Shown piece by piece: positions 12,744 to 56,190 of a DNA stretch of 64,000 nucleotides (the first letter of the stretch is position 1; each line of letters opens with the position of its first letter). Location: assembly GCA_019914995.1 (NCBI GenBank), contig CM034128.1, forward strand, positions 2,978,501 through 3,042,500, written 5' to 3'. The translations under genes and the position numbers were made by a program. Below the pieces are notes generated by a model. That model was not told the origin of the DNA and searched no databases. It saw nothing but the letters and a program-made list of their open reading frames with translations. The DNA comes from Acanthochlamys bracteata. Lineage: Eukaryota; Streptophyta; Magnoliopsida; Pandanales; Velloziaceae.

Positions 12744-13076
12744 TAAAAGTACCCTTTCAAAATATCTCATGCAATGCATTATTGTATTACTAAGTGGACC
12801 AAATTTTATCCTCTTCAACTTTCCAAATGCAATCAAGGTATTCCTTATCCTTCTCTATCTCTAGTCTTCAGCTTCTACTTAAACCCCTAATCCCCCATCT
12901 CTCGGAACCTTCTCATTCATTCATTGGGTTTCATTCACTCTTCAACTAGTTTACATCCAACAATCTCAATTCTAGTTCACTCTACTCTTCTATTCCATCC
13001 ATATCAAGAAGATTGCAGCTTTGTAGTTATAAGAACTGATAGCTACAACAAGAACAAGATAAGAATTCAAGAAAAG

Positions 13077-14267
13077 ATGGAGCAAGAATTCATACCTGGT
13101 TTGCCGGATGATGTTGCGATTGATTGCATAGCACGAGTTCCGCTCCGTCACCACGCCGGAATCAGACCAGTATGCCGCCGTTGGAGAGACCTTATAGCTT
13201 CTCGATTCTTTCGCCGGCAACGTCGCCGTCTCTCTGCAGCTGAGGATCTCTTCTTCCTAGTTCAAGCTGATTCCATTACTCTTCCACTACCAATCTCCCA
13301 ATCCCAAGAAGAAGAAGAATCCAAAGATGTAATCTTTGAAGAAGAAGAAAGACATGGTAGTGATGGCGACGCCAGCAGCAAGAGATCGGACGGTTCTCCA
13401 CGAACGCCGGGGTACGGACTGACTGTGTACAACGTGACGCTCAACGAGTGGAGAAGAGCTACGCCGTCAGCGGTACCGGTCCCCATGTTCGCCCAGTGCG
13501 CCGCCGCCGGAGAGAACAAGATCGTTCTCGCCGGCGGGTGGGACCCAACGACCTTCGAACCAGTCGCTGGAGTCCACGTGCTCGATCCGATCAACGGAAC
13601 TTGCCGCCGTGGCAAAGATTCACCGGCCGCTAGATCGTTCTCCGCCGCCGCGTCAATATCCGGCGGAAGCAAGGTTCTAATCGCTGGCGGACACGATTCC
13701 CAAAAGAACGCTCTGAAATCTGCCGACGTGTACGTTCCTGATTCCGACACGTGGCAGAGTCTGCCTGAAATGTTTGAAGAACGAGACGAGTGCCGCGGGC
13801 TCGCCGCCGGCGGGAAGTTTGTCGCGATAAGCGGGTACGGTACTGAAAACCAAGGAAGATTCAGTTTTTCCGCTGAGTTGTTCGATTGTGAAACGAGTCA
13901 ATGGATCAAAGAAGAGAACTTCTGGAGCGAAGAACAGCAGCAGGGAAGCGGCGGTGCTGCTGCTTGTTTCTCAGTAGAAGGAAAAATCTATTACATCGAT
14001 TGCTCTGTTAGTGATTCTGGAAGAAGAGGTGTTAGAGAATGGGTTAGCAACGGAGGAGCCTGGAAGAATTTCGCGGCTGTGCCGGAAGGAATGAAGACTG
14101 GAGCTAGAGCAGCTGCAGTGATCGGTGATAAAGTTTTCGTCACTGCGGCGGATGCCAGCGGTAATACGGCTTGGGTGTTCGAGTTGAAGAAGAAGAAATG
14201 GGCCAAGATTGAAACGCCGGTTGCTTTCTCTGGTTTCATTTACTCCGCTGCCGCACTCCGGCTCTGA
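13077..14267 (+). CDS. F-box/kelch-repeat protein of the KMD / KFB-PAL (SKIP20) group
   Basis: An intronless gene for 396 residues. An F-box lies at residues 6-50 (IPGLPDDVAIDCIARVP, then VCRRWRDLI), which in this family docks on ASK/SKP1 of an SCF ubiquitin ligase. Kelch blades follow: AGGWDP near 150, AGGHDSQKNALKSADVY near 203-220, and GYGTENQGRF near 252. RRW after the F-box, AGGHD..KNAL and RDEC are hallmarks of the plant group whose members target type-B response regulators (KMD) or phenylalanine ammonia-lyase (KFB-PAL). The specific substrate here is not decidable. An acidic, Ser-rich insert (about residues 80-105) separates the two parts. The start is the first ATG in frame; the frame stays open upstream to 12924 but has no ATG. 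The coding DNA is clearly GC-richer than its surroundings, as often seen in intronless plant genes. It acts in cytosol and nucleus by family knowledge. Confidence 0.9.
   Translation: MEQEFIPGLPDDVAIDCIARVPLRHHAGIRPVCRRWRDLIASRFFRRQRRRLSAAEDLFFLVQADSITLPLPISQSQEEEESKDVIFEEEERHGSDGDASSKRSDGSPRTPGYGLTVYNVTLNEWRRATPSAVPVPMFAQCAAAGENKIVLAGGWDPTTFEPVAGVHVLDPINGTCRRGKDSPAARSFSAAASISGGSKVLIAGGHDSQKNALKSADVYVPDSDTWQSLPEMFEERDECRGLAAGGKFVAISGYGTENQGRFSFSAELFDCETSQWIKEENFWSEEQQQGSGGAAACFSVEGKIYYIDCSVSDSGRRGVREWVSNGGAWKNFAAVPEGMKTGARAAAVIGDKVFVTAADASGNTAWVFELKKKKWAKIETPVAFSGFIYSAAALRL

Positions 14268-46890: not shown

Positions 46891-46926
<36 letters not shown>
46891..46926. repeat. (AT)n microsatellite at the transposon's left border
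   Basis: An uninterrupted AT dinucleotide run of about 35 bases directly abuts the Mutator-like element. A short ATATATAT also follows its right end at 55145, so the element inserted into a TA-rich site. Confidence 0.85.
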
Positions 46927-46927
<1 letters not shown>

Positions 46928-49650
46928 TGGGGAGGGATATACGCACTCCCTCCCCTGTTGACACTCCCAGGCACTCCCTAACGTGTGCGATCAAGATTAC
47001 ATCAGTCGGTTTGTTGTATTTATTTTCGTCCGAAATCTCACAGCTTCGGAAGGTACGAATCTGACAAATTTACGTATTCTCTCTCATCTCTTCTTTCTAA
47101 AAAAATTATTAACTCTTAATTAATCTTACTTATTTTAATTAATTATTATTAATTAAATCTTTTTTATTTTTTCGCTCTCATTTCTCATCTTTTTCTCACT
47201 GTCTTTTTGAAATTTTGTCCTCTCCGGATCTCTCGAAAGCTGAACAAAAATAATATTTGGAAGAAAATATTTGAAAGAACCACTGTTTGCTGCCGATGTC
47301 GGAGGAGCAACGAAGGCAAAGGAGATGAAGAAAGTGATGAGGAAATTGAGGAAATATAGAGAATGAAGACAGAGAGACAAAGCGACGAAGGACGCTGGCT
47401 TGGAGAAGAAAAGAAGCATTGCTTGGAGAACATGAGAACTAAACAAGAAAGTTGACAACTTTATCAAAAAAAGCTACGAACAGATGAAAAAGTTTGAAGA
47501 TTTTTTGTTTCGTTCTTTTTTTTTTGGGAAAAACCAACATTAATAACATTGATGGAGAGATAAAGCCGACAGATGATTTTGATGATGAATACTTGATGAC
47601 TAGTTCTTGATTGTTGGTATTTTACTCATGAATATTCGGTGTCTTGTTCTTGATTGTTTTCTTTTATTTGGAATAAAACTTAAATTTATAATGTTGAAGC
47701 AAAAGTTGCAACAATGCTTCGGAGAGGATTAACCTGCGGAGAGAGAGATTTCAAGTGAGAATAAGATTTCAAAGAGAACGAAGAGAGAAGATGAAAATTA
47801 GGAACTAAAAGATAGAAGAAAATTTAATTAATAGAAATTAATTAAGAGTTAATTAAAGTTTTTGAAAATAAGAAAGGAGAGAGAGTGAATGTGTCAGATC
47901 CGTAACTTTGAAGTTATCATAAAAAACTGTTGGTTTTTTCTCAACCACTATCATTTCTTCATTTGCAGATCTCTCGCTCTCGCTCCAGCCGAGCGGGATC
48001 TCGTCTTGTCTTCGTCCGGGCCGATTTTCGTTTCCGATCTCGTCCAAATCTTGCAGATTTTGCTGTCGTGTCAGATTTCTTCTTGTTTTCGTCTCCGGGC
48101 TGATTTTCTGTCTCCAATCTTATCCAGATCTATTTGATCTCGGTAGATCTCGCTGTCTTCGTCTCCGATCTCATCCTGGCTTCGTCTCCGAGCCGATTTT
48201 CTTCTCCGATCTCGCTATGTCTTCGTATCTGGCCGTGCTGGAGCTACTCTACGCCGATTTTCGTCTCCGATCTCGTCCAGATCTCGCTCTGCGAATTTAC
48301 TTTTATTTTTTTCGATTTGTTTTTTATTTTTCCGGTTTATTATTTTTTTTTGTTGATTTGTTTTAGTTTTTGTTGATTTATTTTTAGTTTTCTCTGATTT
48401 GTTTTCTGTTTTGTTGATTTGTTTTGTTTAACGATGTATTGGTTAGATTTTGCGGAGTATTGGTTTGATTTTTATGCGATGTATTGGTTTGATTTTTTCG
48501 GTGTATGGCACGGTGTTGTAATTGGGAATCAAAATCTGATTGGGCTACGGTGAGGCAATGATGAGGAAGCGGATTTGCATAATATAGGATATGTTCACCT
48601 CGTTCCTGTTTATTCTTTCTATTCTACACTGCATTTTAAAATAGACAAGATAAGCAGCGATGAGGATGGCCACGGCTAAGCATGATAAAGAACCACACTT
48701 GTAGTTGTAACTTTAGAATGTAGTGCAGATAGCAAAACAACAGTAGTATATTGGTGAGAACAGAATTGGTGGCATTTCTGAATCTAACTCATTGAGTAAA
48801 CACGAATTTGAGCCTCCTCGACTATTGTATCTATTTGTACTCTGTAATGTTTGATTGCTTGTGTTGTAATGAGACAATGTAATCAATGTAACTAGTGTAA
48901 ACCTTGGTGGATGAAATTTAATCAGTATCATCCGGAAAGAATGTACCTGTGGAAAGGATGTAATCCATCTACATCTATTTCTTTGTTCATTAGAGCTACC
49001 TGTGTAATCAAGTTTAATATAAAAATAGTTTAATTATGAATGAAAATGCTGTACAAGTTTCATTTTTTTTATTGATAAATCATGAATGAATGTGCTGGCA
49101 AATTATAAAATGTAATCTCGATGAAATTTCTTTATAGTTCGGAGATGAATGTAAAAAAATAGTCAAATCAAAATATTTTATTTCAGTTTTGTCAACTCTC
49201 ACATGTTTATTACTACAGAGTTTAACCAGTTCCCGCGCACGAGTGTATTTTTTCCCGCTGACTATATTTCTTCTTTTCTTTTGTTTCTTCTTCAGCTTTT
49301 GCTTTCTTCTTTCCTCAGAAGCTCTGTTCCATTTTTCTTTCTGGTTTCTTTCCCACGCAGTTCGACTTTCTTCTTTCTCTTTTTTTACTTTCTGTCTCTC
49401 CGACGACGACAAACTTTCTCGACGTCTCATTTTTCTTTATATGGCTCAACCCATCGTTAATAGCTACGAAACGGTTGGAAGATTTGAACAAGGTTCTTAC
49501 GTTTCTGGATGAAAGTTTATATTACGTGATAAAAATAAGCTTAACAAAATTAAAACCAAAAGCATTATATCATTTTTAATTTTTGTGTTGAAGCTAAACA
49601 GAACATAAGAGAGTTATGGTAACAAAAGAGTAGGTTTGCTCTGTTCTGTA
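46927..49650. repeat. Left inverted arm of the MULE
   Basis: It matches the right arm in reverse orientation. Mirrored open frames at 47153-47467 (-) and 54587-54901 (+) differ at two residues. Those at 48713-48931 (-) and 53083-53301 (+) differ at two residues. Similarity falls near 48,640-48,690 and towards the inner end. The arm contains an array of TTCGTCTCCGATCTC-like units (48,027-48,280), GTTGATTTGTTTT repeats (48,350-48,425) and, at its inner end, the first transposase exon. Confidence 0.85.
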
Positions 49651-52154
49651 GATTTTAAATTTTCTTTTTTTGTGTAGCTTTGGAGCCAAACGAGACTGAA
49701 TGTTTTGCTGCTTCAACTCCGGACATATCAATAGCTCAGAAGAATAATTCACCTTGTTTGGATATGATTTTTCCTAGTCTCGAAGCTGCAAAAGAAATGT
49801 ATATATTCTATGGAAGATCAACCGGATTTAATATTGTTACAAGAAGTACGCAAAAAAGAAAGGAAGGCTCGAGGCAGAAAGCGACTAGCTGTCTAATGAC
49901 TTGTGGACGTTATGGAAATTATAGAGACCATGATAAAAAGAAAATAAATGTGGAGACAGAGATTGAAGCTAGCCAGAAGAGAAACAGAAGTACAACAAAA
50001 TGTGGGTGTCCAGCAAAAATGAAAGTCAACAAACAATCTACTGGATTATGGAAGGTGACTCAGTATATTGACGAGCATAATCACAATATAGTCAGTCCAG
50101 CTAAAAGAATACGTATGCCTATCTGTAAGAATATGCCCGCTGCAGCTAAGATGTTAATTGATTCATTTCGTGATGAAGGCATACCTGTGAACAAAGTTGC
50201 AGATATACTTGACGGATCACAGACTGGTTTTGATGATAGAGATTGCTGGAATCATTTGGAAACTTCAAAGGAATACAAAAAACTTATCAAAGGCGATGCC
50301 ATTGCAGCACTGGATTTTTTTAAGAAAACGAGTTTAGAAGATCCTCACTTTTTCTATGCAATACAAATGGATAACGAAGCAAGGGCAACAAACTTCTTTT
50401 GGGTAGATGGTCGATCACGTTTACAGTTTGAGTATTTTGGCGATGTGATCTTTTTCGACACAACATACAGTAAGAATGTGTATGAAATGCCTTTTGTGCC
50501 GTTTACAGGAGTTAATCACCATATGCAGTCGATTCAGTTTGGTTGTGCTTTGCTTTTAGATGAAATAGAAGAATCTTTTGTTTGGCTTTTTGAAACTTGG
50601 CTTGCAGCTATGAGTGGACGTGCTCCAACTTCTATTATCACTGATCAAGATAGAGCAATGACTACTGCGGTTGAGAAAGTATTTTCTAATACTCGACACC
50701 GATTTTGTTTGTGGCATGTGATGAAAAAAATTTCAGAAAAATTATCACACATTTATTTCAAAAAGTCACGATTCAAGAAAGAAATCAAGATGTGTATTAG
50801 AGAAAGTTATACTCCTAATGACTTTGAAACAAGATGGAAGGAATTGCTATGTATGTACAATTTACAGGAGAACGAATGGATTAAAGGAATGTATGAAATA
50901 CGGAAAAAGTGGGTTTCGGTTTATCATTTGGATACTTTTTATGCTGGCATGAATACTACAGGCCGCTCTGAAGGTATGAACTCTGTTTACAGCAATTTTT
51001 TCAGTTTGACTACAACTCTTCGGGAGTTTATTATGAAGAATGAGAAGTGCTTGGCTAAAATTGCTGAAAAAGAAAAAAAAGAAGATTATATTAGTGAACA
51101 CACTAATCGTATTGTTGATAATCATGCTTTTCTTTTGAAGAGTGCGGCAAATGTATACACGAGAAATGTGTACGATAGGTTTAAAAAAGAATTTGAAAAA
51201 GCTCAAGTTGAGTATGTGTTGCATGATGATGAAAAGGGAACTGATGGTTGCACTTGCTACATTTATAAATCTCGACTGCTTGGTGAATCGTGTGAGTGGA
51301 AGGTGAAATTTAATAATGCTAGCAAAGAAGGTTACTGTGAATGTAAGTTGTTTGAATTTGAAGGAATTCCTTGTGGACACTTGATAAAAATTTTTCAGTC
51401 CCGTGATATAGAGAAAATACCGGATCACTTTATTCTTAAGAGGTGGATAAAAGGGGCTAATAAATACAGAGTTGAATACGACGGTAGAACAATGCAAAGC
51501 CATAACAACTCTGATCTGCTAAGAGCTGCCCAACTATTAAAGATTTCTACTCAGTTGTCATATGAAGCTAGTGAAGCAGATGAGACGTTCCAATTGATGT
51601 TGCAAACATTAAGAGAATTGTCGCTGCGAATTAAAGAAGTAAAGAAGAATAAAGAGAGGTCAGAGGATACATGTGTCGCCAATGAGACTTCACAAGCAAC
51701 TGTTAATGCATCTCAAATTTTACTTTTGAATCCCAGCATCTCGCAAACAAAGGGGAGGAAAAAAGAAAAAAAGGCCTTTAGCGGTGGCAGTAGAATAAAA
51801 AGTGATTTGGAAAAAACCGTCGCAAGAGCTAAGGCGAAGACATGGAGAAGATGTGCATGTTGTAACAAAATTGGCGTTAAACACGACAAGCGAAATTGTC
51901 CTGAAAATCCAAATAAAAAGAAGAAATTAAGTAAGTGTAGTGATTACTTCGTTTTGATTCCTAATATAGTAACTCTTTTCTCAGAATTAAAATTAGTATT
52001 GAGATTTGTTAAATTTTTTTTTTTTACAGTTAATGAGAGGAATGCTGATGAAGACAAAGATGAAGGTGATAATGATTTTACAAATGCAAATGAGGACGGC
52101 GACAGCGATGATGAAACATCAACCGATGATGGCCCTTTACATAGCTTTATATGA
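49441..52154 (+). CDS. FAR1-family MULE transposase
   Basis: Exon 1 is 49441-49492 (ATG, MAQPIVNSYETVGRFEQ) and exon 2 starts at 49678 after TGTGTAG; they join in phase. A third intron-like stretch, 51931-52029 (GTAAGTGT...TTTACAG, 99 bp), is optional: the frame is open with or without it, giving about 842 or 809 residues. Domains: FAR1-type zinc finger (AAKEMYIFYGRSTGFNIV, CLMTC, TKCGCPAKM, DEHNHNI); MULE catalytic domain with Asp in FFDTTYSKN (near 50,455), Asp in IITDQDRAM (near 50,640) and a likely Glu in GRSEGMN (near 50,965); SWIM zinc motif CECKLFEFEGIPCGHL (near 51,340); a CCHC-like CACCNKIGVKHDKRNCP (near 51,860); and an acidic tail. No frameshift or stop is seen, so it could be functional. 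FAR1/FHY3 regulators derive from this transposase family, but the arms show this one is still a transposon gene. Confidence 0.88.
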
Positions 52155-52329
52155 GTTGTATGGCTTTTGTGAAGTATATGAAGTGTATACTTTTGGTTCA
52201 AGTGTATGAGCTCGATCGGCTTTTAATATAAGCTGTTATTGTTAGCCTTGGAATTGTATAGTATAGCTTTTGATATGAGCTAACTAGTACGAGTTCTATG
52301 AATTGAATGATATAAGATGTTAAAATTGT

Positions 52330-55146
52330 GTCAAAAGTTTTAAAATTACAGAACATAGCAGAACTTTTTATTTTTTTGTTACCATAACTCTGTTTTGTTC
52401 TGTTTTTTGTTACCATAACAGAGCAAAACTTCTATTCTGTTTAACTTCAACACAAAAATTAAAATAAAAAATAATTTTTATTTTGATTTTGTTAAGCTTG
52501 TTTTTATATCGGTAAAATAAGATTTCATCTAAAATGATAAAAAAGTTTTTCATATCTTCCAACGGTTTCATAACTAGTGCCGATGGTTTGTGCAATAGAA
52601 AGAAAATTGAGTCGTCGAAAAAGTTTGACGTCTTCGGAGAAGACAAAAAGGAAACAAAAAGAAGAAATCCCATAATGTGTGGGAAAGAAAACAGAAAAAA
52701 AGATAAACAGAACAGAGCCTCTGGGAAAAGAAGAACGCAGAAAAAAAAAGAAGAACACAGTTGAAGAAAAAAATGGTCACAGAATCGGTTAAACACTGTA
52801 GTAATAAACATGTGAGAGTTGACAAAACTGAAATAAAATATTTTGATTTGTCTATTTTTTTACATTCATCTCCGAACTATAAAGAAATTTCATCGAGATT
52901 ACATTTTATAATTTGCCAGCACATTCATTCATGATTTATCAATAAAAAAAATGAAACTTGTACAGCATTTTCATTCATAATTAAACTATTTTTATATTAA
53001 ACTTGATTACACAGGTAGCTCTAATGAACAAAGAAATAGATGTAGATGGATTACATCCTTTCCACAGGTACATTCTTTCCAGATGATACTGATTAAATTT
53101 CATCCACCAAGGTTTACACTAGTTACATTGATTACATTGTCTCATTACAACACAAGCAATCAAACATTCTGTAGTACAAATAGATACAATAGTCGAGGAG
53201 GCTCAAATTCGTGTTTACTCAATGAGTTAGATTCAGAAATGCCACCAATTCTGTTCTCACCAATATACTACTGTTGTTTTGCTATCTGCACTACATTCTA
53301 AAGTTACAAACACGATGGTTCTTTGCATGCGCTTAGCAAATGCCATCCTACTGCCTTACTGTCTATTTTAAAATGCAGTGTAGAATAGAAAGAATAAACA
53401 GGAACGAGGTGAACATATCCTATATTATGCAAATCCGCTTCCTCATCATTGCCTCACCGTAGCCCAATCAGATTTTGATTCCCAATTACAACACCGTGCC
53501 ATACACCGAAAAAATCAAACCAATACATCGCATAAAAATCAAACCAATACACCGTAAAAATTAAACCAATACTCCGCAAAATCTAACCAATACATCGTTA
53601 AACAAAACAAATCAACAAAATGCAAAAACAAATCGAGAAAAACTAAAAATAAATCAACAAAAACTAAAACAAATCAACAAAAAAAATAATAAACCGGAAA
53701 AATAAAAAACAAATCGAAAAAAATAAAAGTAAATTCGCAGAGCGAGATCTGGACGAGATCGGAGACGAAAATCGGCATAGAGTAGCTCCAGCACGGCCAG
53801 ATACGAAGACATAGCGAGATCGGAGAAGAAAATCGGCTCGGAGACGAAGCCAGGATGAGATCGGAGACGAAGACAATGAGATCTACCGAGATCAAATAGA
53901 TCCGGATAAGATTGGAGATGTAAAATCAAATCGGAGACGAAAAACAGAAGAAATCGGACACGACAAAGAAAATCGCAAGATTTGGACGAGATCGGAAACG
54001 AAAATCGGCCCGGACGAAGATAAGACGAGATCCCGCTCGGCTGGAGCGAGAGCGAGAGATCTGCAAATGAAGGAAATGATAGTGGTTGAGAAAAAACCAA
54101 CAGTTTTTTATGATAACTTCAAAGTTACGGATCTGACACATTCACGAATTCTCTCTCCTTTCTTATTTTCAAAAACTTTAATTAACTCTTAATTAATTTT
54201 ACTTATCTTAATTAATTTTTATTAATTAAATTTTCTTCTATCTTTTAGTTTCTAATTTTCATCTTCTATCTTATTTTCACTTGAAATCTTATTTTCACTT
54301 GAAATCTCTCTCTCCGTAGGTTAATCCTCTCCGAAGCATTGTTGCAACTTTTGCTTCAACATTATAAATTTAAGTTTTATTCCAAATAAAAGAAAACAAT
54401 CAAGAACAAGACACCGAATATTCATGAGTAAAATACCAACAATCAAGAACTAGTCATCAAGTATTCATCATCAAAATCATCTGTCGGCTTTATCTCTCCA
54501 TCAATGTTATTAATGTTGGTTTTTCCCAAAAAAAAAAAGAACGAAACAAAAAATCTTCAAACTTTTTCATCTGTTCGTAGCTTTTTTTGATAAAGTTGTC
54601 AACTTTCTTGTTTAGTTCTCATGTTCTCCAAGCAATGCTTCTTTTCTTCTCCAAGCCAGCGTCCTTCGTCGCTTTGTCTCTCTGTCTTCATTCTCTATAT
54701 TTCCTCAATTTCCTCATCACTTTCTTCATCTCCTTTGCCTTCGTTGCTCCTCCGACATCGGCAGCAAACAGTGGTTCTTTCAAATATTTTCTTCCAAATA
54801 TTATTTTTGTTCAGCTTTCGAGAGATCCGGGGAGGACAAAATTTCAAAAAGACAGTGAGAAAAAGATGAGAAATGAGAGCGAAGAAATAAAAAAGATTTA
54901 ATTAATAATAATTAATTAAAATAAGTAAGATTAATTAAGAGTTAATAATTTTTGTAGAAAGAAGAGATGAGAGAGAATACGTAAATCTGTCAGATTCGTA
55001 CTTTCCGAAGCTGTGAGATTTCGGACGAAAAAAAAATTTTCGGACGAAAATAAATGCAACAAACCGACTGATGTAATCTTGATCGCACACGTTAGGGAGT
55101 GCCTGGGAGTGTCAACAGGGGAGGGAGTGCGTATATCCCTCCCCAT
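52330..55146. repeat. Right inverted arm of the MULE
   Basis: The inverted partner of 46,927-49,650. It carries a mirror of transposase exon 1 at about 52,545-52,596 (minus strand) in which the start ATG reads ATT. It also has an extra AATTTTTTTTTCGTCCGA-like duplication near 55,030 that the left arm lacks. Confidence 0.85.
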
Positions 55147-56190
55147 ATATATTTGAATCATATTTCAGTTACACTAAGTTTATGTAGCAACCTTTGCACT
55201 TCAATTGAAATTTAACGGAAGTTCTCAACCTACAAGATCACTTAATAGAGCCTAAATTACTTGCAATACAAAGAAACATGCAGTGAGCTGCTGCTAAAAG
55301 TGGTGTGAAGAAGCAAAGTAGCCTACCTTAACCGAGTTGTGGTCCAGCACTATAGCCTTTTTGCAATCCTCCTCTACTCTGGTCCACTCACTGCAGAACC
55401 CCATCAACCAGAATGTGCATATCAAACATCAATTGTATGCATTTGACAATTAAGCTAAAAACAAGGGATAAGATGTCTACGAACTTCCGCTTCCTGTAGC
55501 AAAGTGCCCTGTTTGTCCAGTACACTGCAACATCAGGACACAAAGCAATTGCCTGTAATGTCAAAACGGTAAGATCAAATAATACCAATAGTATCAACCT
55601 AAAATAGAAAAGCACATACGATAACTTGGTGTTAAGAGTATTAACACCCTAAGTATCAAGAGCAATACGCCTAAACCAGCAAACTGAAGGACTAAATTAA
55701 TTAACTTAAGCTCAAAGGAAAACGCTAGTAGGGAGGTATTTGTCGAGGACTTTCCCCATAGTAGGAACAAATAAATTGCAAAAACCAGATTTTGCTTCAA
55801 TATATAGACATATGGAAGAGACCCTTTTTCTCCACATCGACGCACATCTAAATCAAAATAAACGGCAGGAAAGCAGAAAAAAAAATTACAAGTATCAGAG
55901 CTTCTTGACAACGTAAAACCAAAGACAGAAAAAGTTTTCTGCAACACAAACGAGCAGCGTAAAATCGAAAGATCCAAATCCAATGAGCAGCACAGCATTC
56001 AGAAACCGCAAAGACCCGAAATTTCAACAAAAAACATTAAGACAAATCGAACGAGGAACACCTCGGTGTACGCATCGGTTGCACCACCAATCCGGTCTTT
56101 CTTGAAGAAATTGTTCCCGTCTTGACGGAGTTGCTCCGCTTGCTTCGCTACATCGCCGGCACCGGCGCCATTACGAAAGCTAACAACTTT

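What the first reader, a model, noticed from the sequence alone, without database searches (positions are those of the whole stretch)
46927..55146. A complete MULE with inverted arms that make up two-thirds of the element
Both ends and the middle are present: mirrored termini with one mismatch in about 100 bases, arms of about 2.7 kb each, and an uninterrupted FAR1/MULE/SWIM transposase between them. Most described plant MULE inverted repeats are a few hundred bases. Arms this long could fold into a giant hairpin RNA if read through, and would be a natural source of small RNAs against the element.
Basis: partly seen in the sequence, partly recalled or inferred. Interest (0 to 1): 0.75.

Follow-up and report, generated by a model that had tools for sequence, protein, structure and literature searches.

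The report
Jumping gene with matching giant arms
This is a complete plant jumping gene whose two mirror-image arms fill two-thirds of it, and comparison with related copies in the same genome shows that the outer parts of the two arms keep being made alike within each copy while the parts next to the gene do not.

Summary
Window 46929-55144 (8,216 bp) is one complete Mutator-like element (MULE): inverted arms of 2.70 and 2.74 kb (90.9% over 2,792 columns; 66% of the element) around an open FAR1/MULE/SWIM transposase. It is not two nested elements: eight further copies of 15 regions fetched share the layout, two with exact 9-bp target duplications outside TA repeats. Eight of eight other transposase lineages fetched also have inverted arms, about 0.5-3.8 kb; a 2019 survey gives MULE TIRs of 14-500 bp.

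The unexpected part is in the arms. The outer ~2.3 kb is homogenised within copies: pairing each copy's own arms fits about as well as the best tree, grouping by side is rejected (AU p 2.8e-10). The inner ~0.4 kb beside the gene does the opposite (own-pairing rejected, AU p 2.4e-7); all 78 side-diagnostic sites lie there. So one old inverted duplication is repeatedly converted over its outer part only.

It behaves like TA-microsatellite-targeting MULEs (MuTAnT), with far longer arms: a new variant of a known kind. Small RNAs, transposition and the conversion mechanism are untested.

The parts
46929..55144 (+). Whole element, 8,216 bp, GGGGAGGG...CCCTCCCC
   Evidence: Ends read; the same ends in other copies; arms by self-BLAST
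46891..46928 (.). Left flank: (AT)17.5 tract followed by GAT; last 8 bases match the right flank at 7 of 8, no match at 9
55145..55152 (.). Right flank, ATATATAT, probable partner of the target duplication
46929..49222 (+). 5' arm, outer zone, homogenised with the 3' arm of the same copy
49223..49627 (+). 5' arm, inner zone, 76.5% to its 3' partner; not homogenised; 80-82% alike with L029-L031; probably leader or promoter (inferred)
49764..52154 (+). Transposase gene: exon 1 49764-51930, probable intron 51931-52029, exon 2 52030-52154; also open without splicing (49659-52154)
49797..50093 (+). FAR1 DNA-binding domain
   Evidence: Pfam PF03101, residues 47-145 of the stop-to-stop frame
50445..50729 (+). 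MULE transposase domain
   Evidence: Pfam PF10551, residues 263-357
51327..51404 (+). SWIM zinc finger
   Evidence: Pfam PF04434, residues 557-582
52405..52791 (-). 3' arm, inner zone, diverged inverted copy of 49223-49627
52792..55144 (-). 3' arm, outer zone, homogenised with 46929-49222
54121..54265 (.). Internal inverted copy, within the 3' arm, of that arm's own subterminal segment (54863-55004), 81.5%; the matching pair in the 5' arm is 47050-47222 with 47757-47908, 68.6%

Best explanation
A complete, probably autonomous cut-and-paste MULE of a family that favours TA microsatellites, in a plant (probably a monocot). One old inverted duplication gave it arms that once reached into the transposase gene's flanks. 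Since then the outer ~2.3 kb of the two arms has been made alike repeatedly within copies, most likely by gene conversion when the arms pair as a fold-back or invade each other during repair. The inner ~0.4 kb escaped, probably because the 5' side carries the gene's leader and the 3' side its tail, so that conversions there are selected against or fail to start at 76% identity. Shown here: anatomy, family of copies, the two zones, within-copy homogenisation. Inferred: gene conversion as the process, the reason for the boundary, autonomy, any hairpin RNA.
For: Nine copies with the same arm-gene-arm layout. Outer zone: own-pair tree not rejected (AU p 0.374), 5'/3' split rejected (p 2.8e-10); inner zone: split is the best tree, own-pairing rejected (p 2.4e-7). 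Variants carried by exactly two of 14 W-group arms in the outer zone: own-arm 68, same-side 19, cross-side 14. Side-fixed columns 0 of 1,876 outer against 35 of 315 inner. L015 own arms 94.7% against 82.8% to W-group arms. Own arm closest or tied in 169 of 322 arm-bins, against a mean of 60.2 with shuffled partners, 1 of 300 shuffles reaching 169. Sharp inward drop of own-arm identity in the window copy and in 7 of 7 other lineages profiled. The boundary falls where sequence shared with L029-L031 begins. Exact 9-bp duplications in L009 and L011. Conserved D232, D296, E355 and SWIM residues; dN/dS 0.12-0.22 against eight other lineages.
Against: Homogenisation is incomplete and patchy: in 153 of 322 arm-bins another arm is closer than the own partner, and with isolated mismatches only, own arms are closest in 6 of 9 copies (L012 a tie, L009 and L016 not). 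In the free maximum-likelihood outer tree 7 of 9 copies have own arms as strict sisters, not the window copy or L009. The 5' inner zone does not align at all with L033, L034 and L035, so 'conserved leader' holds only for near relatives. dN/dS against the six W-group copies is 0.52-0.89. The window copy has no exact 9-bp duplication. No transcript, protein or movement was seen.
Confidence: 0.72

Rival explanations
1. The arms are made identical as a step of each transposition cycle (for example one arm copied from the other during gap repair or in a folded single strand) and then decay freely, as the LTRs of retrotransposons do. This is a stronger form of the best explanation.
For: The two W-group copies with a clean exon 1, the window copy and L011, have the lowest isolated own-arm divergence of nine copies (0.83 and 0.95%). 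Stop counts rise with isolated own-arm divergence (rho 0.81, p 0.008, n 9).
Against: Own arms of L009 (1.84%) and L016 (12.7%) are more different than their nearest arms in other copies (1.32 and 11.7%). The correlation of own-arm divergence with all disabling changes (rho 0.73, n 16) falls to 0.48, p 0.19, n 9 with isolated mismatches, and L012 and L014 are distorted by garbled stretches.
Confidence: 0.28
2. Assembly or read correction merged the two arms of each copy and made them look alike.
For: Clusters of garbled bases occur in L012 and L014, and long inverted duplicates are known to lower nanopore base-calling accuracy (PMC7229812, search listing and start of abstract only).
Against: Arms of other W-group copies are about 95% alike on either side, so faulty merging should mix copies as much as arms; instead shared variants are own-arm (68 against 19 and 14). 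Own arms of L015 are 94.7% alike while its nearest relatives' arms are 82.8%. The sequencing method of this genome is unknown to me.
Confidence: 0.06
3. Selection alone keeps both arms the same, for example as arrays of transposase-binding sites.
For: The terminal 35 bases recur with 0-3 mismatches at 14 places, with 0 hits of the reversed control.
Against: Selection would keep copies alike, not create changes shared only by the two arms of one copy. Between lineages only 37-38% of the 5' outer arm aligns with L029-L031, against 98-99% of exon 1.
Confidence: 0.03
4. Each lineage formed its arms anew by a fresh inverted duplication.
For: Arm length differs between lineages (0.5-3.8 kb) and outer arms align poorly between them.
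Against: Within the W group, L015 and L016 the inner zone keeps side-specific differences in a single 5'/3' split, so these nine copies share one duplication. For the more distant lineages this rival stays open.
Confidence: 0.12

Closest known systems
MuTAnT / AutoMuTAnT of Medicago truncatula (PMC4486113; parts 1 and 2 of 4 read)
   Same: Insertion into (TA)n, GGGG/CCCC ends, 9-nt duplications where the site is not TA, one FAR1/MULE-type transposase of similar length (833 aa there), fold-back non-autonomous members
   Different: AutoMuTAnT is 4,873 bp; its terminal motif is GGGGTTTGCTAGAACA, here GGGGAGGGATATACGC; family TIRs are mostly under 150 bp there, 2.7 kb here
Jittery group of MULEs (Table 1 of PMC6446971, passages read)
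   Same: FAR1 at the N-terminus, SWIM at the C-terminus, one ORF
   Different: TIRs 39-292 bp or none in dicots and monocots; no Jittery sequence was compared here, so placement is untested
Autonomous gSaTar-MULEs of guayule (PMC5907723, passages read)
   Same: Autonomous MULEs flanked by TA microsatellites with short non-autonomous partners
   Different: 5.3 kb with 400-bp TIRs for the full-length copy described
Galileo, P superfamily, Drosophila (PMC3573991, passages read)
   Same: Very long, internally repetitive TIRs (up to about 1.26 kb) with evidence of sequence exchange
   Different: A different superfamily; the longest TIRs there are in copies without a transposase ORF, here in copies with one
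Tm1 Mutator/Foldback elements of root-knot nematodes (PMC3169594, passages read)
   Same: 9-bp duplications, composite fold-back TIRs, own TIRs on average 93.15% alike
   Different: The ORFs in Tm1 elements matched no known protein in that paper; no two-zone test in the passages I saw
MULEs with tandem TIRs, tomato type 2-46 (PMC3310237, passages read)
   Same: Extended TIR regions in MULEs; [quoted passage not shown]
   Different: There the TIRs group by side and position, the reverse of the outer zone here

Membership tests
MULE (Mutator superfamily) | MULE transposase domain with conserved D-D-E | tested here: met
   Pfam PF10551 1.6e-29; D232 and D296 invariant, E355 in at least 90% of 20 aligned proteins (the catalytic role is recalled)
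MULE (Mutator superfamily) | Terminal inverted repeats | tested here: met
MULE (Mutator superfamily) | Target duplication of 8-11 bp | tested here: met
   Exact 9 bp in L009 and L011 outside TA repeats; L010 and L012 exact but inside TA; L014 exact at 8 and 10 only; window copy 7 of 8
MULE (Mutator superfamily) | Cut-and-paste movement | not testable with these tools
   Only copy number and flanks were seen
MuTAnT | Insertion in TA microsatellites | tested here: met
   5 of 7 W-group copies in TA tracts; 28 of 55,700 other window bases lie in TA runs of 12 or more
MuTAnT | Terminal sequence GGGGTTTGCTAGAACA | tested here: not met
   Only the first GGGG is shared
Jittery group | FAR1 + MULE + SWIM, single ORF | tested here: met
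Jittery group | Position in a MULE transposase tree | not tested
   No Jittery sequence was in hand
Fold-back type element (a structural label) | Long inverted repeats with internal repeats | tested here: met
   Internal inverted copies and short tandem repeats

The most novel reading that the evidence does not exclude
A cut-and-paste transposon whose arms are remade alike as part of its own transposition cycle, over a fixed stretch that ends at the gene's leader: a DNA-transposon counterpart of LTR identity at birth, giving each copy its own clock, in a clade whose arms have grown to nearly 4 kb.
Probability: 0.28. Interest if true: 0.82.

Novelty: new variant of a known kind. Interest (0 to 1): 0.6.

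Why it matters
TIRs of the MULEs in the 2019 survey run from 14 to 500 bp, and its authors write that it is not currently clear why TIR length varies so much (PMC6446971, passages). Here one genome holds a clade with arms from about 0.5 to 3.8 kb in the lineages examined, including copies with an open transposase frame. The two zones of the arm are a built-in control: same copy, same age, opposite behaviour on either side of a point about 0.4 kb inside the inner end. That makes arm homogenisation, and the cost or benefit of giant fold-back arms under small-RNA silencing, directly testable.

Tried and rejected
Nesting of two elements: rejected. Conversion tracts sought on side-diagnostic sites: no clustering in the seven W-group copies (longest run 2); the sites turned out to lie only in the inner zone. 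Age clock from disabling changes: rho 0.73, p 0.0012, n 16 at first, but L012 and L014 carry clustered garbled bases and the trend falls to rho 0.48, p 0.19, n 9 with isolated mismatches; not relied on. Deamination as a sign of silencing: CHG transitions higher in the outer arms than in the core (128 of 1,428 against 49 of 903, p 0.0017), CG lower (56 of 1,386 against 50 of 798, p 0.023): inconclusive. Species: the MatK search did not complete; the F-box/kelch gene at 12891-14267 has six named hits among its best eight, all monocots, at most 48% identity, whereas the nearest transposases named are mostly from other plants, led by Prunus. Monocot is therefore an inference. ARAGORN and Rfam on the window: nothing. 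Papers: ten searches of an open-licence library; in what I saw of them there was no MULE with TIRs over 2 kb and no two-zone arm, but subscription papers and repeat databases are not covered. FARE and TAFT elements are known to me only from mentions in PMC4486113 and from recall. The ends of L035 were set 2 bases too far in, so its row there is not used.
Full report
WHAT IS THERE. The window lies at C3:2978501-3042500 of a 195.5-Mb genome. Self-comparison shows one dominant inverted pair, 46921-49627 against 55152-52405, 90.87% over 2,792 columns. From the ends as read the element is 46929-55144, 8,216 bp, with arms of 2,699 and 2,740 bp, 66% of the whole. Between the arms is a frame open from 49659 to 52154 with FAR1, MULE and SWIM domains. 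In an alignment of exon 1 with 19 related plant proteins, D232 and D296 are invariant and E355, C525, C527, C537 and H539 are in at least 90% (their catalytic and zinc-binding roles are recalled). Near the 3' end a 99-bp GTAAGT...TTTACAG stretch looks like an intron; splicing leaves 763 aa in frame, and the eight other copies aligned differ in length just there. In L011 the only stop met by the frame lies inside this stretch. No transcript was seen.

ONE ELEMENT, MANY COPIES. A search with the first 501 bases gave 42 matches, 40 of 103 candidates scored. I fetched 15 regions: one is the window copy again, eight show the arm-gene-arm layout (L009-L016; L013 with an insertion and its right end completed from L028), six are fragments or other repeats. 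With the window copy, L009 to L014 form what I call the W group (89-95% by BLAST over the long matches); L015 and L016 are more diverged. L009 has TATAAATAT and L011 TTAACTTAT, exact 9-bp duplications outside TA repeats; L010 and L012 are exact but within TA; L014 matches at 8 or 10, not 9; the window copy matches at 7 of 8. Five of the seven W-group copies sit in TA tracts, while 28 of the other 55,700 window bases lie in TA runs of 12 or more.

THE WIDER CLADE. The transposase search scored 54 of 1,266 candidates and listed 56 matches. All eight have inverted arms: L030 3.83 kb at 92.9% after adding flanks; L031 1.9 kb; L035 about 2.0 kb in two pieces; L032 1.2 plus 0.8 kb; L033 0.86 kb; L034 0.38 plus 0.19 kb; L036 0.47 kb; and L029, whose partner arm lies in L026 across about 10.6 kb of other sequence, 1.6 kb at 94.9%. 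Own-arm identity drops sharply towards the gene in the window copy and in 7 of 7 other lineages profiled; in L034 part of the arm does not align. A diverged relict zone inside the drop is seen by BLAST only in some (L032, L033). Exon 1 has no stops or frameshift gaps in the window copy, L011 and L034; all other 14 copies compared have at least one. dN/dS of the window copy is 0.12-0.22 against L029-L036, 0.26 and 0.37 against L015 and L016, and 0.52-0.89 against the six other W-group copies, which fits selection on active lineages and decay of single copies. Relatives with the same terminal motif and arms of about 0.86 kb, without a transposase match in the stretch fetched, are L024 and L027.

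THE TWO ZONES. I aligned the 18 arms of nine copies. All 78 sites at which at least 5 of 7 W-group 5' arms differ from at least 5 of 7 3' arms lie at arm positions 2302-2685; none lies in the outer 2.3 kb. In the outer zone, for the window copy, arms of other W-group copies are equally alike on the same or the opposite side (94.8 and 94.9%) and its own arms are closer (96.6%); in the inner zone own arms are 76.5%, same-side 95.2%, cross-side 76.0%. AU tests agree: in the outer zone a tree with every own pair as sisters is not rejected (p 0.374) and a 5'/3' split is (p 2.8e-10); in the inner zone the split is the best tree and own-pairing is rejected (p 2.4e-7). Own arms are strict sisters in 8 of 9 copies in a FastTree tree (not L009) and in 7 of 9 in the free IQ-TREE tree (not the window copy or L009). 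In 1,876 gap-free outer columns of the W group, variants carried by two arms are own-arm 68, same-side 19, cross-side 14; 253 singletons, 81 multi-state, 26 mixed and 8 paired columns were left out of that comparison. A binomial test against chance pairing gives 5.8e-51 but ignores relatedness. Side-fixed columns are 0 of 1,876 outer and 35 of 315 inner.

The side-specific inner differences show that these nine copies inherit one inverted duplication, so the arms are not made anew by each copy. L015 makes the homogenisation plainest: own arms 94.7%, against 82.8% to the arms of the W group on either side.

WHY THE BOUNDARY. The 5' inner zone aligns over 94-96% of its length (80-82% identity) with L029, L030 and L031, the outer arm over only 37-38%. 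In L033, L034 and L035 the inner zone does not align at all. So among near relatives homogenisation stops where sequence shared along with the gene begins. I infer that this is the gene's leader or promoter, that the 3' inner zone is its old inverted copy now serving as the gene's tail, and that conversion across it is selected against or blocked by the 24% mismatch.

WHAT SPEAKS AGAINST OR REMAINS OPEN. Homogenisation is patchy: own arms are closest or tied in 169 of 322 arm-bins of 100 bp, well above shuffled partners (mean 60.2, 1 of 300 reaching 169) but far from all. Counting isolated mismatches only, own arms are closer than any other copy's arms in 6 of 9 copies; L012 is a tie, L009 and L016 are not closer. 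So homogenisation is frequent on the time scale of transposition but is not shown to happen at each jump. Many raw own-arm differences are clustered; in L012 and L014 the cores are garbled too (20 and 52 indel events against the window copy), which looks like consensus error. For that reason the correlation of own-arm divergence with disabling changes is not used as evidence. Cytosine deamination gave no clear sign of arm-specific silencing.

HOW IT COMPARES. It works like MuTAnT (PMC4486113, parts 1 and 2 of 4 read): TA targeting, GGGG ends, 9-nt duplications, one transposase. Its terminal sequence differs, so it is not filed as MuTAnT. TIR lengths seen in papers here are 14-500 bp across a MULE survey (PMC6446971, passages), 400 bp for a guayule TA-targeting MULE (PMC5907723, passages), 145 bp for Muta1 (PMC5225508, passages) and up to about 1.26 kb for the unrelated Galileo (PMC3573991, passages). 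Homogenisation of TIR repeats is suggested for two of three complete Tetris elements (PMC4079207, one passage); a tomato MULE family shows the opposite, grouping by side (PMC3310237, passages). I saw no two-zone arm described in the ten searches listed under Tried and rejected.

VERDICT. A real, complete element and a new variant of a known kind. Its arm length is exceptional against what I could read, and its arms show within-copy homogenisation with a sharp inner limit.

Noticed in passing
L014 (C6:7163100-7172300) and L012 (C5:1850900-1860300): Clusters of garbled bases in otherwise W-like copies (52 and 20 core indel events against the window copy); they look like assembly consensus errors, so stop and frameshift counts of these two are unreliable.
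   Followed up: partly
L013, left arm: A 1,441-bp insertion of unknown identity sits in the left arm.
   Followed up: no
C10:5609.5-5626.7 kb (L026 and L029): One related element is split by about 10.6 kb of other sequence between its 3' arm and its gene.
   Followed up: partly
L024 (C20) and L027 (C11): Elements of about 2.8 kb with arms of about 0.86 kb share the terminal motif and TA flanks; they may be non-autonomous partners.
   Followed up: partly
arm positions about 1690-1790 (window about 48617-48717): A short palindromic stretch is scrambled differently in many arms while its flanks are nearly invariant.
   Followed up: no
window 8.5, 26.3-26.8, 30.0-33.6, 39.5 and 61.4-61.6 kb: A dispersed repeat of about 100-300 bp in both orientations at 67-83% identity.
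   Followed up: no
window 12891-14267: F-box/kelch-repeat (SKIP20-like) host gene whose best named relatives are monocots, at most 48% identical.
   Followed up: partly
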